From positions 3,663,001-3,727,000 of the forward strand of contig OZ014415.1 in NCBI GenBank assembly GCA_963965975.1: DNA of 64,000 nucleotides, in the 5' to 3' direction. Both the position numbers and the translations under genes were made by a program. This stretch comes from Xestospongia bergquistia. Lineage: Eukaryota; Porifera; Demospongiae; Haplosclerida; Petrosiidae. The notes below the pieces were generated by a model that saw only the letters and a program-made list of their open reading frames with translations, was not told the origin of the DNA and made no database searches. Positions 997 through 17,100 of the stretch are shown here, one piece after another. Each line of letters starts with the position of its first letter. The first letter of the stretch is position 1.

Positions 997-2820
997 AGTA
1001 TACTGTTACACCTGTACTTAGTTTCTATGCTGCTGGATAGCTGAGTGGACAGCTGCTAAATTAAAATTCTATATGATATATAGTTACAAAATAAGAAAAA
1101 AGTATTGCATCATAGGAACAAGCTGATCCATTGAGTCTTATTCAGTGGTTTGTAGGTGCTAATGGTGAGTTATGTTTGTGGTTTGTGCATGTAGCTGTAG
1201 CTAAGAAGCCTAACAGTGCATCAGCTCCACCTATTGATCAATTAAGTGTGGGTGTATTTTGGCCAAAGGGGGGGCTCAAGCCCCAAATGCCACCCCCCTG
1301 GCTACGGGCCTGGGACTAGTGGAAAAACTAGCTGACATTTGCAAGACCATTTCTAATGAAGATGATGCAGTCAAAGCGGAGAGAGTATAGTTACCATTTA
1401 CTTTGGCATGACAATTGATGATAGAATAGTTTAGCTTCTATCCATCACAATTTGATCATGAGAACTCAGTATGCTAGTTTTCATTATGACCTTTACGAGC
1501 GCGAAGTGGCAGACATTCAACAAACTTCACCCTTGATTTCTTGTAGGAATACGTTTTTGCAACGTCCTTGAACATTACTATGTCAGCAAACAGCCATGTT
1601 GCAAACTTGAAGAATCAAAAACTGAAGTTATCGAACTGGCCACGCGTAAACGATGAAGTTTCGCCTCTTATCGTCTACTTCTAACTTTAGTGCCACTAAA
1701 CTCTATACTTAGTACACGCTCACATATGTAAGTTTATGCAAAAACATCACTGTTTAGTTGCCTCCTACTAATAACAATAAGATACTACTGAAACTATTAT
1801 TAATCTCTGAGCTTCAATACGACTGAAATATAGTCATAAAGGTTTGTGTGTTACTGGCATGCAAATACTAGAGGCCTTATATTAACGCTATTGTTCTATT
1901 CTCTAGTCAAATATTAATGACTACGACTAGCAAACGAAAAGTAGTTCTATTACTAGTAGCATTGCTAAAGATTTGTGTTTCAAACTCCTAAATCTATAAT
2001 GAAATATAAAAATTGTTAAATTAAACTTACAGTTGTGTAGTCAAGAGGAAGAATGACGTCATAATGACATTTTTGTCAAACAGCTTTAGGGAAAACAGCA
2101 TGATCGTTACATGAATAAAATCTAAAGCAACTGAAAGGCAACCATTGCTTAAAAATTATAGTATAGCACATTAAAAGTAACCAAACTAAGTTGTAACATC
2201 TTTAATAGACGAACTATATAAAATAATTAAAAATGTTTTCTAAAGTAGTACATAAATTTATGGGATGTGTAATATCAATTCAATACAAAGAAGACAATAG
2301 GGATGACAAATGCATCATCCCTACATAATATCACAGGCACAGAATGCAACAATATATCTGTAATATTATTTAAGTGATCTATTTCATTTTTTAGAAAATA
2401 TCTTTATTCATTTTAATTCTTTGCATAATTTTTAAAAATGTAATTGTTTGATAGTCATTAACAAATGGCATGTTGGAAAGCAATGAGATTCCATGTTTAA
2501 CAAGCTCACAAAAAAGTTCTTATAACAGTTAATTTTTGAATAAGTAATTTTTATAAAGAATAATAATCAAAACATAAATTCAAAATAAATCATAACTTCA
2601 AAATGGATATTAGCCTACTACCTTAAATATTCTTAATAAGAAAATGAAAAGATGCATAACTAGTAATGCAAGTATAACAATAAAGTAATAACTAAACATA
2701 TAAATATAATTATTATGACACACACTGTAAGTGTAAGGGAAACATATATAATGAATCAAAGAAACAAGATTTATTAAAAACTAATACCACAACAATATAG
2801 TGTTAACACACTATGTACAT
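997..2820. other. Intergenic stretch with a dispersed-repeat tail
   Basis: No convincing gene. Around 1255-1316 there is a GC-rich island (GGGGGGGCTCAAGCCCC, then CCACCCCCCTGGCTACGGGC) that stands out from the AT-rich surroundings and looks like the end of a dispersed invertebrate repeat. The 62-codon frame over it is best seen as a by-product. From 1,900 to 2,800 the sequence is A/T-rich without recognisable coding potential. Confidence 0.45.
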
Positions 2821-3436
2821 GAATTGTTTAGTGTTGTTTTAGTTAACTATAGCTATAACTATAACTATTTTAGTAAGCACTTTTGTGATTTAGTTAACTA
2901 ACTATAACTGTAACTAAATTTATTTCAGGTAAGCACACTATAACTAAACTATAACTAAAATTTTTGACAATTTTAGTGAACATAGAGGTTTTATAGCCAC
3001 ACCTATACCCATGCTTCATTTCATTTACCACACCTATATTCACTTCACTAACCACACCTATATTCATTTCACTTACCACACCTATATTCACTTCACTTAC
3101 CACACCTATAGGTGTGCTAACTGCTACAGGAAGAGATTAGTGATACATAATAGGTGTGGTAAGTGATAATGAGTTCACAAGTTTACATAGTTATCAATTA
3201 GTAACACAGTAACTATAGAAGGAAACGTTCTGCACATTACCGAGAACATTGCCAGTTGAGACAGTAGAAGAAAACTTTAACTAAAACTAAAATAGACCTA
3301 ACTTTAACTATAACTAATTTGTGTTTAATTTTAGTAACTTTACTAAAACTAAAACTAAAACTCCTACCAGTAGGTTAACTTTACTATAACTATAACTAAT
3401 ATGAAAATATGTAACTAAAACAACACTAGAATTGTT
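2821..3436. mobile_element. hAT-type MITE, 600 bp, with 8-bp target-site duplication
   Basis: The element occupies 2829-3428. It is flanked by the direct repeat GAATTGTT at 2821-2828 and 3429-3436, and its ends are inverted copies starting TAGTGTTGTTTTAGTTA. An 8-bp duplication and a TAGTG terminus are hAT hallmarks. The body has no coding frame. It is made of degenerate subterminal repeats of the ACTATAACTAAA type, in opposite orientations in the two halves, around a central minisatellite. It is non-autonomous and would need a hAT transposase in trans. A hAT-like gene lies 1.8 kb to the left, but nothing here shows the two are partners. Confidence 0.8.
2998..3116. repeat. 24-bp minisatellite inside the MITE
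   Basis: About four tandem copies of a 24-bp unit beginning CACACCTATATTCA and ending near TTCACTTAC. The last copy runs into a short palindrome, CACACCTATAGGTGTG. An inverted single copy (GGTGTGGTAAGTGA) lies at about 3153-3166, so the centre could fold into a hairpin. The minus-strand 69-codon frame across it is only repeat translation. Confidence 0.8.
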
Positions 3437-4781: not shown

Positions 4782-5232
4782 TAGGGTTATCATTAAAAAA
4801 TTAAAGTTTCTTTATATGTTCTGTTTACTCCTTACAGTTGTAGTCCACCTATGACTAGTTACAGATCTAGTAAAATTTCTGCAGTTCTTCGTTTGGTTGT
4901 GACAAAAATTAATAATAATAATTTAATCAATTTACTCATAATTGGAATTTACGGTATACCTCGAGGGCAACTATTCAACTCGATTCTAATCTACTTTACC
5001 GGCAGTTCTCGTGAAAAAAACTTCATACCCTTCTTACTTAATCACAGGAGAGTTATTGGTAAGCGATAATAACTATATTGGCGCATTTTTATGATGCTCG
5101 ATATTTCATTTTAGAATTTTATTCCTACAAAACTTCAATCAATTGGGGGCATTTTGCGCTCATAAGGAAGTACTATTAGTCACCTTACTACTACGAAGTA
5201 ATCGTCTAGTATCTTGGTGATTTGTCATCTGA
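4782..5232 (+). repeat. Left terminal inverted repeat
   Basis: 451 bp, matching the reverse complement of 9676-10118 nearly throughout, from TAGGGTTATCA at the outer end to TTTGTCATCTGA at the inner end. It differs by a short A-rich insertion near 4793-4803 and scattered substitutions. A 72-codon frame at 4851-5069 lies wholly inside the repeat and is not supported as a gene. Confidence 0.9.
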
Positions 5233-5456
5233 ATTTGGTAATATTATTTTGATGCCCCACCCACATATTATTATTAACACTTTACAGTACACAGAATAAA
5301 CAGTAACATAATATGGGTAGTAGTTAATATGAAAGTACTATCTCTATATGCCCCTGTATACAGTTTTTGGGATGTGCCTGACATAATTACACAGTCACTA
5401 TACTGAATTCAGTTTTACGAGTCAATGGCAGGATATTAGAATTTATGTAATTATTT

Positions 5457-6422
5457 ATGAGTAGGTATACTATCATTATGATGCCTATTGCTTTGTCGGT
5501 GTTGAGGGAAAGGAAATTGTCAGGAGAAACTAGAGGACTAGACTACTATGATCCAATGGATTTGCTAACCTTAGCACATGGTTGCAGCATTAAGTTAATC
5601 AGAAATATGGGGAAACGAACACCGATTGAAAATATTGACAGTCAGCATGGATACCCTACAATAGCCAGCTTCAACATTAATTACAAGAATCGACAGAATA
5701 TATCGGAAACTCCATCTCATGTTTTAGTAGCTGATAATGAAGGACCAGTAGATATATATGACATCAAAAAAAAGACTTTGTTGCGTAGCTATCTTGAACA
5801 CGGGTCAAGAGTTACTGGACTTACCTGGTATGAAAAACAGTCATTTATCTCCTGTTCTGCTGATGGAACTGTTCGTTTATATGATCTTGCAAACTGCCAT
5901 AGTCATCTTTGTCTTAATCTTTCTGCCGGTACATGTAGGGTCCACATCAGCCCATTTTCTCCCCAATTAATTGCATTTGGGACAACAAAAGACAAGTTCT
6001 ATATCTATGACATACGAAATACAAGTAGTCCATTCATTGAAGCTAAGGCACATTTGAAGACAGTTAGTAATACTCTATTTTTGTCCGAGTTTGAGATGCT
6101 CACAATAGGCACTGATAACACAGCAAAACTATGGGATTTGAACCGAACTGTTTGTACAACTACTTTTGAAGATAATACACATGAATCATGTTTTGGTGGT
6201 GTTGACAGCTTCAGTGATTTCGTTGCTCTGGGTGGTGAAGATAATTTCATTCGTATATATACAAAATATGCTTCAAAAAGTATTATCACCAAAGCGCTTC
6301 ATCCATCATCAACATATGTTTGTGGTTGTGTTCTTGTACCTAAAGATGAATCAATACAGTTAATTGCAGCAGGAAATCAAGGTCACCTTGTATATTTCCA
6401 ACTAGACATTGTGGAACATTAG
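5457..6422 (+). CDS. COP1-like WD40 (seven-bladed beta-propeller) protein carried by a transposon
   Basis: A single uninterrupted frame of 321 codons. An in-frame TAA lies just upstream of the ATG. Seven WD-type blades can be traced at about residues 27-50, 68-110, 113-145, 157-190, 198-235, 240-272 and 285-318. Order and wording follow the propeller of the E3 ligase COP1 (RFWD2) rather than generic WD40 proteins: ISCSADGTVRLYDL, then ISPFSPQLIAFGTTKDKFYI, YDIRNT, then EMLTIGTDNTAKLWDLNRT, VALGGEDNFIRIYTKYASKS, and a last blade ending LIAAGNQGHLVYFQL. COP1's RING finger and coiled coil are absent, so on its own it should bind substrates but not act as a ligase. In COP1 this propeller binds Val-Pro-containing degron peptides. 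A decoy or adaptor role for the element is inference. It converges on the transposase gene and is intact while that gene is broken. Alternative: a host SPA/COP1-related retrocopy that landed in the element. Confidence 0.85.
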   Translation: MSRYTIIMMPIALSVLRERKLSGETRGLDYYDPMDLLTLAHGCSIKLIRNMGKRTPIENIDSQHGYPTIASFNINYKNRQNISETPSHVLVADNEGPVDIYDIKKKTLLRSYLEHGSRVTGLTWYEKQSFISCSADGTVRLYDLANCHSHLCLNLSAGTCRVHISPFSPQLIAFGTTKDKFYIYDIRNTSSPFIEAKAHLKTVSNTLFLSEFEMLTIGTDNTAKLWDLNRTVCTTTFEDNTHESCFGGVDSFSDFVALGGEDNFIRIYTKYASKSIITKALHPSSTYVCGCVLVPKDESIQLIAAGNQGHLVYFQLDIVEH

Positions 6423-6479
6423 AATGTTAAATTAATGTTATATTCATTAAAATTATGTAATATTAAATTAATGATAATA

Positions 6480-6755
6480 ATTAAGTTACGCAAAAAAGAA
6501 AGAGAATTGAGAAAGGGAAGAGGAGGACAAAAATGGGAGAAAGATGTCATTTATAAATTTAACTTAGAGGATTGAGAAAGGAAGAGGACAGAAAATGAGA
6601 GATATAATATGTCATTTTTAAATTTAAGTAATTAAGTTATGTAATAAAGAAAGAGGATTGAGAAAGGAAGTGGACAGAAAAAGCAATAAAGAAAGAATTG
6701 AGAAAGGAAGAAATGGATATATGTCATTTATAAATTTAAGTAATTAAGTTAAAAT
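6480..6755. repeat. Purine-rich tandem repeat between the convergent genes
   Basis: About three degenerate units of roughly 90-130 bp. Each carries AGAGGATTGAGAAAGGAAG-like purine runs followed by TGTCATTTATAAATTTAAG and TAATTAAGTTA. It fills the space between the two gene ends and probably contains both 3' untranslated ends. No canonical AATAAA sits close to the WD40 stop. Confidence 0.7.
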
Positions 6756-9659
6756 TTTTAAGTCACCTTGCAAAAGATCTTCTATTAAGTTGAAATGAAT
6801 AATTTCACTGCTATCTTCATATTCAATATGGTGCATTTCACCATCATAGTCCGATACAAAACCACTAAACCACTGTTCCTCTTCATCATCGATGATAAAC
6901 TTATGCATGATTTTACCAATAAGTGCATACGGATCACAATCAGTAGTTGAAGAGCATTGTCCTGAAACAGGTGAGTCTCTAATTAGTCTTCAAACTTCCT
7001 CTATTAACACACTTAAAGGACGCTTACGTCCATTGCTAGTGAAGGTGATCTTAGTTTTTTGCATGAGAAGCTTCTTTCTAATTCTGACTTGCTTGCTCCT
7101 TGAGTAAATTCAAAACCTTTGACTCTCGTTTTGCTTTTAGTAAATCTTCACCTTCAATATTACTTAATGCTGTTTCATACTCAGTGAGTGAGCTGATCAA
7201 ATGAAGTTTTGACAGTCGTTCTCTTTCATCTGCTTGTTTTTTTCTTAATGTGTCAATTTTTTTTCTTTTGGAGCATTCTACTTTGTCTCCTTTCAGAAAT
7301 GAACTTTCGTGTTTTGTTGAAATCTTCTCTAATGTCTTTTCATTTTTTCATAGCTAACTCAATAATTATTTTTCTTCTTTCCTCCAGTAAATCATTAAAC
7401 CACTCCATTGTGTGATTTTTTTAAATTTCAACTAAATTACTTTTAGTGAGCTGCACTAAATTTGGTATCGCCGTGCAGAGGTAGTCGTTAAGACCCAATA
7501 TTGATTCCGATAGATCATTGCTCGGTTCTAAATTCTTCAAAACATCTGCTGTCTTGTCATCAACATTCCAATAGAGACCATTCGGTAAGAAATCCTTTGC
7601 ACACGCTTTAAGTTTTTCCTTCATAGAAGATGCTCCAGCGGCAACTTTTAAATAAAAGGAACCATCATCAGGTAAGCTTTGGAAGAGATGTTCTTGAAAA
7701 CAGTCAGAAGCAGAGCAAGTGTGCTTATGGGTTCTGTGATTAAACTTTGTATCATGATAGAGTCTACATTCTGAAGGAAAAACTTCGAAGTAGCGATTAC
7801 GTACGATTTCAGGAGATTGTTCTAATTTTTCCCAAAAAATTTTTAGCTCTAAATAGTGTTCTCGCATACTGTATACAGTCTTTTTAAGTTCTCTGGACTT
7901 CGCTAATAAGACCAAGTCAGCGTACACATGATGGTACATGAAAGCATCAAGTTTCAGCAAATCTATAACACAGCTATCAGTCAACTTACAAAATACATCT
8001 TTCTCCAATTTATTTCAATCGTTAGACTTGTTGGTAAACTCCAGGAATTTAATGGCAGCATTAGAAAGAAAGACAATTTTAGTTGCATTGTGAGAAGTCA
8101 CGAAGTACCTACTTTCAATTTGACGAGAGAGTGATATATTACGACAAGTTTGATAATAAGTTTGGTTATCATCCATTTGACTCGCACGGTAACTTAAAAA
8201 GTCCTGAAATTGAATATGGACTCCATATTCAGGACTTCCATGACTACTAAATAGTTTACAACATTCATAAACAAATGAATCAATAGCTTCCTGCCATTCT
8301 ATTTGTGCTGTAACAAATGCTTTACGAAGGTTAACTCCTAAATGCATTGCACAGAAACTACGTACAATATCCATATTTTCACTGCCTGCCACAGGAAGTG
8401 CTTTTATGTCGTCATCTTTGCGTTGTTGTATGAGATCATTAGTGTTTCTGCGTAGATGCTGAATCAGAAGTCGAGGCACAAATCATTGACCAATTCAACT
8501 TCTTATTATTAGGAATACCTAACTCTTCAGCAAAACATCTAAGCTTCTTAAGTTGACGATCTATATCTCCAATAATTGAGTCAGCTGTGCCATCTGGAAC
8601 TTCACTAATTGAAAGAACGACACCATTAAAAGGAATAGCATTTAATTTATGTTGATTTTTTGTGGTACCATCACTATTCAGATATAAATTATCAGCCTCC
8701 GATAGCAGTTCAACCTGATGAGCCATACAAACTCTCTTTAGCTCTTCCCTGCGCATGTAATTAGCACAAGTGCTACCAGGTAACTGTTTCCACGTCAATA
8801 TCAAGAATAAAAGCCTTAACAACATCTTTTATTATGTTACGTATTTTTCCTGGGGGTATTTGTGAAGCCAGTAAAGAGTAATAAAGTGTTCGTACTGCAG
8901 GTAAGTACTTCTTTCCATCAAAAGTACACAGTGATTGGTCAGTCCTTGAAATGAGTATTTCTTCAGAGTCACCATTACGTAGAAAGTCTGCGTCCAATTT
9001 CTCAAAATCCAATATTGCCAGATTATACTGTTTTTGAAGCCTTTTTATCATTTTGTCCTTTTTCTCTTCAATGGTCTTAATATCTCGTTGAAGATTATTT
9101 ATAACTTCATCCTTTTTACTCACAGTCTTTTTTAATGCTTTTAATTCTCTTCTTAATGTTCATATTTTAATACGCTTACGGTTTTCACGTCTTTTTACAT
9201 TTTGCGGTGCATATCGAGCACGTTGATCAATGAATGATGGTACAGCTTCACACATACCAGAAGTACACATATCCTGAGTCTCCTAAATTTGTGATTCGGG
9301 ACTAAATCCAGGAATAGCTGCAGTGGCATGACACAATTGAAGCTTTCCTAAATGAGTGATAATTGTATCATTACAATTTCAATACTATATGGCTTACTCA
9401 AGTTTCGAATTCGTGGCCTCCAGATCTTTTCTCGGTATAAAAGTAATGCATCCCCCTCGATTGAAACTTTCCCTTTTGTAGACGGTATAGTTGGGGAAAT
9501 GATTCTTTTTACGGTCTGAATGAATCAATCTTTTCTGCCAATGTACACACTAGGATATGTACTTTTCACTTCAGCAATCACTTTCAGTGAATCTCCATCA
9601 TGAGCATGATAGGCATTGATGAGGAATCCATAAGGGATGCCGGCTCTGCTGGCTGCCAT
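6744..9659 (-). pseudogene. Broken transposase-like gene (coiled coil, probable RNase H-type core, Tudor-like tail)
   Basis: Order along the minus strand: an N-terminal piece from the ATG at 9657-9659 (MAASRAGIPYGFLINAYHAH); a basic and coiled-coil stretch near 9060-9230 (SKKDEVINNLQRDIKTIEEK); a conserved core at 7421-9123 with NSDGTT, VVLSISEVPDGTADSIIGDI, STSDSAST, AMHLGVNLRKAF, DAFMYHHVYADLVLLAKS, AAGASSMKEKLKA and PSNDLSESILGLNDYL; a helical Glu/Lys-rich piece; and a C-terminal piece near 6750-6930 (EEQWFSGFVSDYDGEMHHIE, EDLLQGDL) of Tudor/chromo-like pattern. The Asp in SDGT and in TSDSA could be catalytic, by analogy with DDE/D enzymes; this is inference. Frame changes near 8780 and 8450, stops near 9525 and 8012, and heavier damage below 7400 break it. 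I recall similar unnamed proteins as multicopy families in cnidarians and sponges. The final part may be a separate second gene. Confidence 0.7.
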
Positions 9660-9675
9660 TTTTTCAAAATTCTGC

Positions 9676-10118
9676 TCAGATGACAAATCACCAAGATACT
9701 AGACGTTTACTTCGTAGTAGTAAGGTGACTAATAGTACTTCCTTATGAGCGCAAAATACCCCCAATTAATTGAAGTTTTGTAGGAATAAAATTCTAAAAT
9801 GAAATATCGAGCATCATAAAAATGCGCCAAGATAGTTATTATCGCTTACCAATAACTCTCCTGTGATTAAGTAAGAAGGGTATGAAGTTATTTTTCACGA
9901 GAACTGCCGGTAAAGTAGATTAGAATCGAGTTGAATAGTTGCCCTCGAGGTATACCGTAAATTCCAATTATGATTAAATTGATTAAATTATTATTATTAA
10001 TTTTTGTCACAACCAAACGAAGAACTGCAGAAATTTTACTGGATCTATAACTAGTCATAGGTGGACTACAACTGTAAGGAGTGAACAGAACATATAAAGA
10101 AAGTTAGTGATAACCCTA
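9676..10118 (-). repeat. Right terminal inverted repeat
   Basis: 443 bp, the partner of 4782-5232. The inner end TCAGATGACAAAT lies just outside the transposase ATG, so the repeat probably also holds that gene's promoter. The left repeat should likewise serve the WD40 gene, which would give both genes near-identical upstream sequence. Confidence 0.9.
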
Positions 10119-10438
10119 CCTTTGGTGATGACCCTTACCAGCTCGACTCACAGCTGCAAGGGCGTCTCGTTTCCAACGGAAAGTATCGTGTTCTCAGCTT
10201 TAACTTAACAGAAAGCATATCATAAATAACAAAATACTGAACTTAAATAGACCAAAGTACAATAGACAAAGTAAGGTAACCACACAACAAAGAAGTGCAA
10301 AGTAAATATGACAAGATCTAATTAACACACATACACTACTTAACAAGTCATTCAGTAAGACAAATACTGATTAACAGGACATTCAGTAGGACAATCAACA
10401 AGGTGAAGTGTTGAGTGAACTCTGTTACATAAGTTATA
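10119..10438. other. Spacer between the two DNA transposons
   Basis: About 320 bp. On the minus strand a short frame reads RWKRDALAAVSRAG and then meets GTAAGG, which could be a relic exon with a donor, but it is too short to identify. The rest is A-rich, with repeated AACAAG/ATTCAGTA motifs and no further signal. Confidence 0.3.
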
Positions 10439-11240
10439 CTCTGTCCGAGTTGAGAAAAGCCACCCAGACGTGTGAATAACTTTGCCGTTTTACGTGCTAT
10501 CGACATGAAACTTGCACAATCGATTTATCTTGCAAATGCGCATTTTATATATAAAAATTGGCTCTCTAGCACTACGAGAAAGTACCAAACTAGAAAACTC
10601 CATACATTTTGAATGGCATACCTTTCGCATACTTTAAATTGCACACCTTCGAGCAGATAACAAAAATCGATTTTCACCTCGAAAAGTCAGCCGACTATCA
10701 CGTGGCAAGTCAAAATTACAATTCTAATTATACGAATAAATGCCTTTGTATCAATTATTACTATTAAAATAATAACCAGGAATCGTCTTTTGCGATTTTG
10801 GGCAGCTATAAAGCCACCATGGTTTTGAAAAAAACCTTTTGACAAAAAAGGAAAACTGAAAATGTCTAAAATTATTCGTCATCAGAACTGTCAGATTGAT
10901 CTTTCTCCTTCCGTATCTTTTTGATACTGGAACGTGAAAGTCCTGTGGCATCACAGGTTCGTTTCAGAGATCCTTCAGTCCGTTTGCGCCTGCCAAGTTC
11001 CTCGAAATATTCATAGACATTCACAGCAACCTCCTTTGTTTGTGATCGCAATCTTTTTCCACTTGGCATGTTTACAAGCACGAGAAAAAACGTGGTGTGT
11101 TCGCATGACATCCACGTGAACAAATAATGAATACACTTAACACGTACTTCAGCGCTAACAGGCAAGGAAATACCTCACCTTACATTCCATGCATAAAACA
11201 CCTTTTTTTTAATAAGGGGCTTTTCTCAACTCGGACAGAG
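10439..11240. mobile_element. Short Tc1/mariner-type element (about 800 bp) with 23-bp TIRs
   Basis: The ends are perfect 23-bp inverted repeats starting CTCTGTCCGAGTTGAGAAAA (10439-10461 and 11218-11240). TATA lies on each outer side, consistent with a TA target duplication, although TATA is itself palindromic and the TIR could be read as longer. The interior holds one short coding region on the minus strand and no DDE catalytic region, so this is an internally deleted, non-autonomous copy. Confidence 0.8.
10872..11069 (-). CDS. N-terminal helix-turn-helix part of a Tc1/mariner-like transposase
   Basis: 65 codons from the ATG at 11067-11069: basic start MPSGKRLRSQTKEVAVNVYE, then FEELGRRKRTEGSLKRTCDA and TGLSRSSIKKIRKEKDQ, ending in an acidic SDSSDDE tail. 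The region TCDATGLSRSSIKKIRKE is a typical recognition-helix pattern for the DNA-binding head of this superfamily. The catalytic domain is missing, so the product could at most bind element ends, perhaps as a repressor. The frame also extends upstream of this ATG, but the MPSGKR start fits the family better. Confidence 0.6.
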   Translation of the reverse strand: MPSGKRLRSQTKEVAVNVYEYFEELGRRKRTEGSLKRTCDATGLSRSSIKKIRKEKDQSDSSDDE

Positions 11241-11287
11241 TATAGTATTTTTAGTGCTAATGTCAGCATTATATACAAAATTAGTCA

Positions 11288-11650: not shown

Positions 11651-12154
11651 GATCCTGTTTGAATAAAATAGATCAATTAAGATATTGAAACTGAATATTG
11701 AATATATAATGAAGTACATTGAGACAGAGTTGCATGTGATAAAATTAACTGCATAAAATTGCTGTTTTAAACTTGATTTAATAATTTTCATATTTATTTA
11801 GGGTAGGTGTGTCATCTCACTTCTTAAACAAGTGGTGACATAATAACGTAGCAGTTCAAAGTGCTAACGAGGTGCTCAGACTCAATAAAATGACATTTGT
11901 ATCCAAATATAGTGCTGACATCAATAATTATTGGGATGTGACATCTCTTTGAATTTCTATGGTATCAAGCCATAAGCATGTTATACTCCAACCTACATCA
12001 TACTGTGTTATACATTAATTTTGGTATGAACTGTGACATAACAATCCTCAGATTTGTTTTACTACATATATAGCACACTATATCTGTAATACATCCCAAA
12101 AAGTTGGCTATAACCAATACTTATGAGCCAATAACACTATACACTAAACTTTTA

Positions 12155-13430
12155 GAAGAGTTGGTCAGATATAGTTTCTATTTTGTCTTCATTTAATGGA
12201 GGATTGCTAGGTCCTATAATAGAATGAATTAAGATACAGTACAGAGTGGTGTAAGTATGATGAATTACAAAATTAGTGTGGTATAGGTATGATACACAAC
12301 AAATAGACAATAGATTTCTTGTACATGTACATTCTAACTAATTTATACTTACCAAAGGATTATGTCCAGCAAACACACTAAATTGACTGCAACATTCCTT
12401 TACTGACATGACTTGATGAACTTGATGATACGAATGAGGATTTGAAATATGAACACCTATTCTTTATGTGTTGACAATGGTCCTCTTGAAGTGCCATCTC
12501 AATATTGAAAAGCACTTTTGTCACTGAAGGAGCAATGCAAAAAAAAGATCATGGACTCCCACAATTTGTTTAATGTCCACATTATTGGTGTTATTGTCAT
12601 CACTAACATCACATTTTGCAAGCACTGATCGAGCAACATCTTTTATATTATAAAGCGTGCGTTCACTAACAGGAAGAGTATAAGCTTTTGTTTCATTGCT
12701 AGGAGCAATAAAGTATTTCTCACATTTAAATGAGTGCATCTCACTCAACTTTAATACAGTCTTAATAACATTATTAAAAAATATGCAGCTTTTTATGACA
12801 TTTTCCATTGATATAACTACTGTAACACAATGATACTTTCCTGTTACTTCAACAAATAACTTTGACTTTCTCCGTCTCCCAAAAAATGCCATTTGTCCAC
12901 ATATGGCAATTACAAGCTAGCATTTGAATTTTTTGGTTATCTTTAGCAATGTCACCAGCTTTAAATTTATTGTGGCGTTGCAGACAAACATTATATGAAA
13001 AGTAAAAAAAAAGGTGAAGGAATCATGTTGAGAGAAATTGGTTAAGATCAGGACACCAGACACACCACCCCAACCTGTTTATTATCTGTGGTGGCTTAGT
13101 ACTAATGAGAGATGGGATAAATAATAGCTCATCTGATGTCAGAGAAGTTGAAACTGAGATATTGGTTCTGAACTTTTGCAATGTATTTGATTCTAAAACA
13201 TGACAGAACTGAAGACTTTTAAGGAACCCAATTAACATATCAGTATTGTGCTTTTGAAAATTTTCTTGCAGAATAGACTTAGGCACAATACCAGTATTAC
13301 TAGCAATATTTCAATCGGCATGTTTGATTTCCTTAGGAGCAAATAGAACACCATTGACTTCAGTAAGAAGAGTAGCTCTGTCAATAACTATCCATCATTG
13401 AGCATCATGATATATTAATGATACTGTACT
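12155..13430 (-). pseudogene. Decayed tandem partial copy of the Roc/COR exon and linker exon
   Basis: Colinear with about 14,330-15,650 of the main gene. 13,023-13,420 repeats the COR-side text (MLIGFLKSLQFCHVLESNTL, then WCVWCPDLNQFLST). 12,521-12,892 repeats the next region (YHCVTVVISMENVIKSCIFF, RTLYNIKDVARSVLAKCDVS, IKQIVGVHDLFF). 12,155-12,213 repeats the small linker exon, with a one-base deletion and a stop near its end. The pieces lie in different frames with stops between them. The GTPase and ankyrin parts were never copied or have been lost. Same strand, directly 3' of its parent. Confidence 0.8.
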
Positions 13431-14115: not shown

Positions 14116-17100
14116 CTACAGTCATGAAATTAAATACTAATTTCAACCACTATACTATACTTATATGCAATATTTATAATATAATAGTTTCTTCATTGAC
14201 AATCAGATATGCATATTTGTTCTATAGGTCTATAAGGCAAAATATTTACTAACTCTTAGGTATCTCATCTAAACTTTCAGATGCTAATAGGAGATACATT
14301 TAATAAAATAAGGAGCCACTAACACAATACACAAACCTTTAAAGTGGTGTTGCTCAGACATACTTTCTATATCGCGTTCAGTTAATGGAGGATAAGCAAG
14401 ATCCTATAATAGAATGCAGTATAAGTATGATGAAGTACAAAATGTGGTGTAAGTATGATCCAGTAGAGAAAGTGTAAAGTATGATGCAGTACAGAATGTA
14501 TGATACATGATGTAAAGTATGATGCAGTACAGAATGTATGATACATGACATTACATTTATTGTATGATCAAACTAACATATACTTACCAAAGGATTACGT
14601 CCAGCAAACACACTAAGTTGACTGCATTGTTCTTTTACTGAAATGTGACTTAATGATAAGAGTGATGATGAGAAAAAAGAACACCTATTCACAATGTGTT
14701 GACGGTGGTCTTCTCTAAGTGACAATTTATCACTGAAAAGTGTTTTTGTGACTGAAGGAGCAATGTGAAGAAAAGGGTCATCAGCTCCCACAATCTGTTC
14801 AATGCCCATCTTCTTGGAGTTGCTGTCATCTCCAACATTACCTTTTGTAAACACTGATCGAGCAATGTCTTTTATATTATAAAGGGTACGTTGATTCATG
14901 AGAAGACTACGAGCTTTTGCTACATCACTAGGAGCAATAAGGTATTCCTCACATCCAAACGAGTGCATCTGGCTCTTCAATGTTAATACGGTTTGAACAA
15001 CGTCATTGAAAACTTTGCGGCCTTTTTTAATGTCATTCATTGATGTAACTACTGTAACACAACGATAGTGCTCTGTCACTTCAACAATAACTTCAACTTC
15101 ATTCTCCCAATAAATACCATTCATCCATACATCACAACGACGAGCTAACATTAGGATTTGTGGATTTCTAGCAAATTCTCCAGCTCTATTATGGCATGGA
15201 AGACAAAAAATGTAAGAAAGGCTAAAAAGGAGAACATGAAGAAATCGTGTTGAGAGAAATTGGTTATGATCAGGACACCAGAGGCACCATCCTATCGCAT
15301 TTTCTATTTTGATATCTGTAGGGGGCTCAGCATGAATGAGAGATGGAAAAAATAAAAGCTTATCTAATGGCAGAGGAATTGAAGCTGATATATTGGTTTT
15401 GAACATTTGTAGTGTATTAGATTCTAAAACATGACAGAACTGAAGACTTGTAAGGAACCCAATTAACATATAAATATCATGCTTTGGAAATGATTTTTCC
15501 AGAACAGATGTAGGCACAATACCAGTATTACTAGCAATATCATGATGGGCATGTTTGATTTCCTTAGGAGCAAAAAGGACGCCATTGATTTCTGTGAGAA
15601 GTGCATCTCTGTCAATAACTACCCAACTTTCAGCATCATCTTCATTTTTAAGGAATAAGATGAGACCTTTGTCACATAAAGTGGTTAGGAATTCCAATAA
15701 GACTGACCTTTCTGAAGGAAGTGAAGGGTCATCACGCTCTCTTAATTTGCTACATAGCTCCTTTAAGCTAATAGCTACAATATTCTCTTCACTTCGAAGC
15801 AATTTCAAGAACGAGAATTGAACGTGGCAGTAGAAACTAATTTTATCAGATCGATCAAGTACAGCTTTACAGCTATAAGAAAGCATACCAACAAACTCCT
15901 TTACACCTTTTCCACCAGGACGATGACATTCCATTGGTAAGAACCCACAAAAGTCTTGTGAATGATCAGCATTTTTAGCAACTTCAGCAACTACTTTGGA
16001 AATTTCCTCCCAACCATCAGTCATCTCATCACGTCGACTTCCAATGACAAGTATTTGAGATGGCCTTGAGCTTGGTAAATGAAGACTGACATTCTTTATA
16101 AAATTAAACCAGTAATATAACTCACACTTAATGATGTGGAGATTGTTGGTCATCTTAGAAAGTATGGCAAAAACAGCAGGTGTGTTTAGCATGAGATTTT
16201 CGAGAATTGCTGCATGACTACTGTAATACTCCTTATGCCCTGCAAGATCATAAAGGACAATGTTTCCCACTTCGTGACTTGAAATGGTATTGGCATTAAT
16301 CCCAGTAGTAAGTAAATCCACTAGAATAGGATCAGATGTGTCAAACTCATAGTTAGGTGGCTTCTTAGCTCGTTCCATAATGACTGCTGCAAGTGAACTT
16401 TTACCTGCACCGGTATTGCCACAGAAAAAGACTTTGCTGTACGATTCTACTGGAAAGTCTTTTTGACATTGATCAAAAGGCTCAAACATCTTTAAAATGC
16501 CAAAGCGATTTATGTTGTCATGATAAACAAGCTCCATTGCTGTTTGATTATCTTGGTTCTTAGCAATTGGATTGACTTTTCCTGATGACAAAAGGGATTT
16601 CACAACATCACCATAACAACCCTTGCAAGCAGCATGGAGGGGCGTATCACCAAACTAAAAAAATATTTATTTATAGTAACTCTTCATTTATATCTAAATT
16701 TGAAAGTATTTTGCATATATTGCTAGTTAAGAATTATGTCACAAACCAACATTAACAATTTTGTACTAATATAAACATTGGTAGAATATTTTTGAAGAAA
16801 TGAGAATTAGACATTTTGAAAAAGGCTCAATTCTGCATATATTAGTGATATATAAACATCGAACTATGCATTTAAAGAGACTTTATTCCCCTTCACATTT
16901 TCTAATGGAAACCAGACTTAATTTTTCAGAAAAGCTTTAAAAATTTATCTAATCAATTATGCAGTAACTTTCTACAATGTTTTGAGTAAGTTCTTTAAAA
17001 TGTTTTAGGACGTAGTATATGTTCTATATTAATCTTATTAATGAATAAACCATTAATGCATGTCACAACTTACATAATCAGCAATGTCAGGGTTAGCACT

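What the first reader, a model, noticed from the sequence alone, without database searches (positions are those of the whole stretch)
4782..10118. A DNA transposon carrying a complete COP1-like WD40 propeller as cargo
The sequence shows ~450-bp inverted repeats around exactly two convergent genes, one a transposase-like gene and one a 321-residue protein. Blade order and motifs of the latter (FGTTKDKFYIYDIRNT, IGTDNTAKLWDL, LIAAGNQGHL) match the substrate-binding propeller of the E3 ligase COP1/SPA family. The RING and coiled coil are absent. COP1's propeller recruits Val-Pro degrons, so a mobile element encoding it could act as a decoy or adaptor on host protein turnover. I know of no described transposon family with this cargo.
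Basis: partly seen in the sequence, partly recalled or inferred. Interest (0 to 1): 0.82.

Follow-up and report, generated by a model that had tools for sequence, protein, structure and literature searches.

The report
Jumping gene carrying COP1-like propeller
A DNA transposon in this animal-like genome carries, beside its transposase, a whole extra gene for a protein related to the substrate-reading half of the ubiquitin ligase COP1, and three scattered copies show that the pair jumped together, although the parts of COP1 that grip its usual targets have been lost.

Summary
Window 4782-10118 is a transposon with ~430-450-bp terminal inverted repeats (98% alike), an intact intronless 321-codon WD40 gene, and a convergent, broken transposase-like gene. 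The genome holds two more insertions with the WD40 gene between the same repeats at unrelated sites (one with an exact 7-bp target duplication), plus one deletion derivative. Relatives of the transposase sit in long-TIR elements without the WD40 gene, so it is an added gene of one subfamily. The propeller groups with COP1/SPA (100/99 support in a 9-row tree, SPA1 recalled), as a sister on a long branch. It is only 23-29% identical to COP1, including the host's intron-bearing COP1, so it is no recent copy of that gene. The copies drift neutrally after insertion (dN/dS about 1), but the gene could hardly have stayed open over its long stem without selection. The likeliest reading is an old accessory gene of the element. 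A role against the host COP1-DET1 ligase is attractive but untested (in Chlamydomonas, DET1 loss mobilises a TIR transposon). The transposase's superfamily is open.

The parts
4782..10118 (.). whole transposon copy (ends TAGGGTTATC...GATAACCCTA)
   Evidence: ends set by where similarity to the C1 and C7 copies stops; the 1-kb flanks of the three copies share nothing
4782..5232 (+). left terminal inverted repeat
5457..6422 (+). intact WD40/COP1-related propeller gene, 321 codons
6423..6743 (.). AT-rich intergenic stretch with short direct repeats between the two convergent genes
6744..9659 (-). transposase-like gene, broken by frame changes and stops; open pieces include 6744-6989, 7078-7347, 7421-8014, 8015-8482, 8439-8828, 8773-9159
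9676..10118 (-). right terminal inverted repeat; the transposase ATG lies 16 bp inside it, the WD40 ATG 224 bp inside the left one

Best explanation
SHOWN: a two-gene TIR DNA transposon that moved as a unit, with the WD40 gene inside it in 3 of 4 copies (the fourth is a deletion derivative); the WD40 protein is a diverged relative of the COP1/SPA propeller without RING or coiled coil and without the VP-degron contacts. INFERRED: the propeller gene was acquired long ago (not from the present host COP1), was kept under selection as a second gene while the element lineage was active, and both genes are expressed from the near-identical repeats close to their starts. INFERRED, weaker: the protein is an accessory factor that keeps some COP1-type partner contacts but not degron reading. 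The single molecular role I hold likeliest (about 1 in 5) is interference with the host COP1-DET1 ligase by a propeller that cannot deliver substrates, favouring transposition. The copies seen now are decaying.
For: Mobility: 3 insertions with unrelated 1-kb flanks and the same TIR-WD40-transposase-TIR layout. An exact 7-bp duplication CAAAAGG flanks the C7 copy; of 7 elements with both ends read, 3 have exact 7-bp duplications, 2 have 6 of 7, and 2 (this window and the C1 copy) have none. Added gene: sister elements L026, L027, L030, L031 have inverted repeats and a transposase, and the genome-wide WD40 search hits only the three elements at E<=0.001. COP1 kinship: phmmer of the window protein against 177635 PDB sequences gives COP1 first (2e-24), next natural protein RUP2 (2.9e-15); the C1-copy protein scores 92-97 bits with three COP1s against 13-32 bits with 8 other WD40 proteins; clade with COP1/SPA 100/99, with COP1 only 93/92. 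E511, R515 and K600 (human numbering) are shared by the element and all four COP1/SPA rows and by none of three outgroups. Past selection: simulated neutral drift to about 31% protein identity leaves 11 stops on average and no open frame in 500 runs. Host DET1 is present. Transposition of a TIR MITE is enhanced in a Chlamydomonas det1 mutant (PMC12445801, passages).
Against: After insertion the WD40 gene shows no constraint: 5 synonymous to 16 nonsynonymous changes C5-C1; dN/dS 0.89, 1.00 and 1.40 for the three pairs; one of three copies is broken. All three copies share a frame change in the transposase at a homopolymer near window 7256 (relative to L026), so a full-length transposase in their last common ancestor is not shown. 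A COP1 profile scores WDR5 (122 bits, summed over five partial domains) about as high as the element (113 and 124 bits, one main domain). One of the two COP1-DET1 contact patches (human 686-691) is absent and the other only partly kept (E492, E511, H512 kept; T494 to P, D525 to E). No expression data. No other eukaryote genome could be searched, so persistence of the gene in the element lineage is inferred. Structure predictions are poor (pLDDT 37.6 and 50.9).
Confidence: 0.75

Rival explanations
1. Passenger: the element picked up a COP1-like gene (from a lost host gene or another species) shortly before its last burst; the gene does nothing for the element, as in Pack-type gene capture.
For: dN/dS about 1 between copies, one copy broken; [quoted passage not shown]
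Against: No donor found in this genome: the spliced host COP1 is 23% identical and has introns, and the element protein finds only the three elements at E<=0.001. The gene is complete and intronless. Neutral decay after insertion is expected for any element gene, and the transposase decays too.
Confidence: 0.22
2. VP-degron decoy or adaptor: the propeller binds Val-Pro degrons of host proteins and shields or redirects them.
For: COP1/SPA kinship; R515, K600 and F645 kept.
Against: K472, Y491, W517 and H578 are replaced by G, N, T and D/G; W467A and Y441A in Arabidopsis COP1 disrupt or strongly reduce VP binding (PMC6745501, passages), and K472G/H578A/Y491G abolishes c-Jun binding of human COP1 (PMC12808801, passages). 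The host's own COP1 keeps all four.
Confidence: 0.06
3. Transposition cofactor: the propeller binds the element's own transposase or transpososome (or chromatin) and has no link to ubiquitin any more.
For: Two-gene layout with a repeat arm close to both starts; the degron surface is lost.
Against: A sister element (L026, TIR arms 99% alike, exact 7-bp duplication) moved without the gene, so it is not needed by the transposase family as such.
Confidence: 0.2
4. Chance juxtaposition: host sequence with a WD40 gene caught between two solo repeats.
For: This window's copy lacks a target-site duplication.
Against: Two more insertions with the same layout (5.4 kb on C1; internally deleted on C7) at unrelated sites, and an exact duplication at C7.
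Confidence: 0.01

Closest known systems
COP1 / SPA substrate-receptor propeller (and plant RUP)
   Same: best sequence match among solved structures, clade support 100/99, shared E511, R515, K600 (human numbering)
   Different: RING and coiled coil missing, VP contacts lost, no introns, element-borne, 23-29% identity, sister branch
KAONASHI/KIU Vandal MULEs with a Ulp1 domain (plants; PMC13317346, passages)
   Same: a class II element lineage that has kept a captured domain of a ubiquitin-like pathway in one of its own genes
   Different: plant non-TIR MULE and a Ulp1 protease domain (SUMO link recalled); here a TIR element and a ligase substrate-receptor propeller
Mu13 of maize (PMC3276141, passages)
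   Same: a TIR DNA transposon containing pieces of a WD40 gene
   Different: Mu13 has two short stretches (73 and about 42 residues, 88% and 95% identical) of a maize WD40 gene; here a complete gene with no close donor found
hAT-like and KDZ/Zisupton TIR transposons (features recalled)
   Same: TAGGG ends; a CxxH-like motif after the second Asp motif
   Different: 7-bp duplications, TIRs of about 430-650 bp, no Pfam, PDB or fold match for the transposase

Membership tests
COP1/SPA propeller | sequence kinship closer than to other WD40 families | tested here: met
   SPA1 was recalled, COP1 sequences came from or were verified against PDB; the reverse COP1-profile score is less clean
COP1/SPA propeller | VP-degron pocket (human K472, Y491, W517, H578) | tested here: not met
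   G, N, T, D/G in the element; host COP1 keeps K, Y, W, H; the alignment at K472 is the least certain
COP1 E3 ligase | RING and coiled coil in the same protein | tested here: not met
   the stop-to-stop frame begins 6 nt before the propeller's ATG; a C3HC4-type pattern scan of the copy found nothing, though that scan also misses RINGs split by introns
COP1-DET1 partner | both DET1 contact patches | tested here: inconclusive
   patch a partly kept, patch b absent
TIR DNA transposon | TIRs, target-site duplication, several dispersed copies | tested here: met
   duplication absent at this window's copy and at C1
hAT superfamily | detectable hAT transposase domains | tested here: not met
   no Pfam match near cut-off, no PDB match, hhalign to one hAT ORF fragment of L025 Prob 0.2, no Foldseek match with a poor model
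hAT superfamily | TSD usually 8 bp, ends YARNG (recalled) | tested here: inconclusive
   ends fit, TSD is 7 bp
Pack-type capture elements | non-autonomous element with fragments of identifiable host genes (recalled definition) | tested here: not met
   complete gene, a transposase gene beside it, no close donor found in the genome

The most novel reading that the evidence does not exclude
A DNA transposon lineage has carried its own COP1-derived propeller over long evolutionary time as a weapon against the host ligase: having lost degron reading but keeping part of the DET1-facing surface, it poisons COP1-DET1 and so stabilises factors that let the element move, the opposite side of the DET1 restraint on a transposon seen in Chlamydomonas.
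Probability: 0.1. Interest if true: 0.88.

Novelty: new variant of a known kind. Interest (0 to 1): 0.55.

Why it matters
Transposons with captured host sequences are known, but complete, long-maintained regulatory genes are few (recalled). A mobile propeller from a conserved E3 ligase would link ubiquitin-dependent proteolysis with transposon control in animals, and it gives a testable partner (COP1-DET1). It also marks a transposase family that I could not assign, with very long TIRs and 7-bp duplications.

Tried and rejected
VP-decoy mechanism: rejected as the leading idea after comparing pocket residues. Recent capture from host COP1: rejected, 23% identity and an intron-bearing host gene. 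Host COP1-like loci as further mobile cargo: rejected where looked at; L050 and L052 share one >9-kb duplication of intron-bearing genes (with a piece upstream that by eye resembles a RING end), and the 42-bp inverted pair in L050 is not at the ends of the duplicated unit. Purifying selection on the copies after insertion: not found. Transposase breaks all private to single copies: I first thought so from the gap list; one search showed one frame change, at a homopolymer near 7256, in all three copies. Relatives in viral contigs (WD40, transposase) and in prokaryote genomes (WD40): none confirmed. Structure predictions gave poor models; Foldseek of the WD40 model lists COP1 chains first, but at pLDDT 37.6 this is weak and partly sequence-driven; the transposase model matched nothing. 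F645 as a COP1-only mark: dropped, because WDR5 also has F there in the alignment. Literature searches for a transposon carrying COP1 or a complete WD40 gene found none beyond the Mu13 fragments, in the held open-access library only. Dropped rows: of six host WD40 stretches fetched, L058 (188 aa) was left out of the tree; of the 13 rows, five outgroups were left out.

Full report
OBSERVATION. The window lies at G000:C5:3663001-3727000 of a 146-Mb, 21-contig genome. Between 4782 and 10118 there are two inverted arms of about 430-450 bp, 98% alike, an open, intronless WD40 gene 5457-6422 (+), and a convergent gene on the minus strand from about 9659 to 6744, broken into pieces. The quoted motifs are present.

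MOBILITY. The WD40 protein gives 4 matches at 3 loci in the genome: this one, C1:4.009 Mb (95% identical, intact) and C7:6.227 Mb (split in two matches, with a stop and a frameshift). The left TIR gives 7 matches: both ends of those three copies and one end of a fourth at C1:23.243 Mb, which keeps only about 20 bp of the other end and lacks everything from there into the transposase, so it cannot tell whether it once had the WD40 gene. The C7 copy also has internal deletions in the transposase. The 1-kb flanks of the three WD40-bearing copies share nothing. The C7 copy is flanked by an exact 7-bp duplication. Of the seven elements whose two ends I read, 3 have exact 7-bp duplications (C7, L026, L030), 2 have 6 of 7 (L025, L031) and 2 have none (this window, C1). 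The ends of L027-L029 were not determined. The ends read TAGGG or one change from it.

WITH AND WITHOUT THE EXTRA GENE. A 155-residue piece of the transposase has relatives of 41-49% identity elsewhere in the genome. Four fetched sister elements show inverted repeats around a transposase: L026 (606 bp, 99%), L027 (321 bp, 93%), L031 (650 bp, 88%) and L030 (624-bp arms 100% alike, with a rearranged left end). None has a WD40 match at E<=0.001. In L026 no ORF of 120 aa or more lies between the repeats besides the transposase, save one antisense to it; in L030 the non-transposase ORFs are under 100 aa. The WD40 gene is therefore an addition of one subfamily. The transposase has no Pfam hit near a cut-off, no PDB hit and no fold match (poor model); its superfamily stays open. 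A D...D...CxxH-like order and TAGGG ends recall hAT-like elements (recalled, not a test); hhalign to a hAT fragment gave nothing.

WHAT THE PROPELLER IS. phmmer against PDB: COP1 2e-24, designed Tako8 1e-15, RUP2 2.9e-15, LST8 1e-11 (381 sequences matched, 60 shown). Against a small panel, the C1-copy protein scores 92-97 bits with three COP1s and 13-32 bits with eight other WD40 proteins. The reverse test with a COP1 profile is less clean: element 113 (C5) and 124 (C1) bits, mostly one continuous domain, but WDR5 122 and GNB1 101 bits as sums of several partial domains. Trees: sister to COP1 93/92 with 13 rows; with recalled SPA1 and 9 rows, element+COP1+SPA 100/99 and COP1+SPA without the element 90/89. 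The element branch is long (1.6-1.8 changes per column), so its exact place is unsure.

RELATION TO THE HOST COP1. Human COP1 as query finds exon-sized stretches of 36-60% identity at about a dozen loci. One, C12:4.918 Mb, splices into a propeller from ten exon pieces, 51% identical to human COP1. Seven more fetched loci are intron-bearing relatives of it. The element gene is 23% identical to the host COP1, 26-27% to Arabidopsis and 29% to human COP1: not a recent copy.

FUNCTION. In COP1, W467A disrupts and Y441A abolishes or greatly reduces VP-peptide binding (PMC6745501, passages), and human K472G/H578A/Y491G abolishes c-Jun binding (PMC12808801, passages). In the element, human K472, Y491, W517, H578 are G, N, T, and D (C5) or G (C1), while host COP1 keeps all four; the alignment around K472 is the least certain. 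E511, R515, K600 and F645 are kept; WDR5 also has F at the last one in another alignment. Of the DET1 contacts named in PMC12808801, patch a keeps E492, E511, H512 and changes T494 and D525 (host COP1 has D for E492); patch b (686-691) is missing, though it is also poorly conserved in the host and Arabidopsis COP1. The host has DET1 (C10:883 kb). In Chlamydomonas, transposition of a TIR MITE is enhanced when DET1 is lost (PMC12445801, passages). This makes interference with COP1-DET1 a coherent but untested idea; I give it about one in five as the molecular role.

SELECTION. Between copies: 5 synonymous/16 nonsynonymous (C5-C1), 5/18 (C5-C7), 4/20 (C1-C7), dN/dS 0.89, 1.00, 1.40; WD40 divergence 2.2-2.7%, transposase 2.6-3.4%, TIRs 1.8-4.4%. 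So the copies drift without visible constraint. Most frame-changing gaps in the transposase are private (C5: three, plus one in an A-run at the ATG; C1: four), but a frame change at a homopolymer near 7256, relative to L026, is in all three copies; it may be an old lesion, a natural shorter end, or a missed intron, so whether their last common ancestor had a full transposase is open. No frameshift in the 0.97-kb WD40 gene of two copies is not significant at this density (my estimate, P about 0.1). Over the long stem, however, simulated neutral change to about 31% protein identity leaves 11 stops on average and no open frame in 500 runs, so the gene was selected for most of its history, in the element or in an unknown donor.

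LIMITS. No eukaryote collection other than this genome was available; viral and prokaryote scans confirmed no relative. That the host is a sponge was not tested. No expression data.

NOVELTY. Precedents: Mu13 carries WD40 fragments (PMC3276141, passages); Vandal/KAONASHI MULEs keep a Ulp1 domain (PMC13317346, passages). I found no report of a transposon with a complete COP1-like gene in five searches of the open-access library.

Noticed in passing
L035-L041, L043, L050-L053 (C12, C1, C2, C4, C13): The host COP1 gene family is expanded: eight fetched intron-bearing COP1-like loci, two of them within a >9-kb duplication 97% alike (L050/L052); L043 has a stop inside an exon-like stretch.
   Followed up: partly
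window 30561-64000: Long array of units of roughly 630-640 bp (mostly 80-92% alike) with blocks of 6.4-6.7 kb repeated, interrupted by 3.4-kb segments 97.6% alike; about 28% GC with strong skew.
   Followed up: no
window 10435-11244: 27-bp perfect inverted repeats around 756 bp with a 100-residue ORF on the minus strand: perhaps a second, small TIR element directly beside the first.
   Followed up: no
window 14573-16654: 693-residue minus-strand ORF with an ankyrin-like start and a P-loop (GNTGAGKSSL), by eye a Roc/COR-type protein; partly duplicated at 12125-13408 (75%).
   Followed up: no
L030 1810-7557: Sister transposon on C9 with a rearranged left end: the outer end at 1810 matches the 7-bp duplication, but 2038-3039 is a 100% inverted copy of the right end together with 378 bp of its outer flank.
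   Followed up: partly
L025 319-2063: A hAT element (Dimer_Tnp_hAT, 7e-21) in the same locus as the deletion derivative of the WD40 transposon.
   Followed up: no
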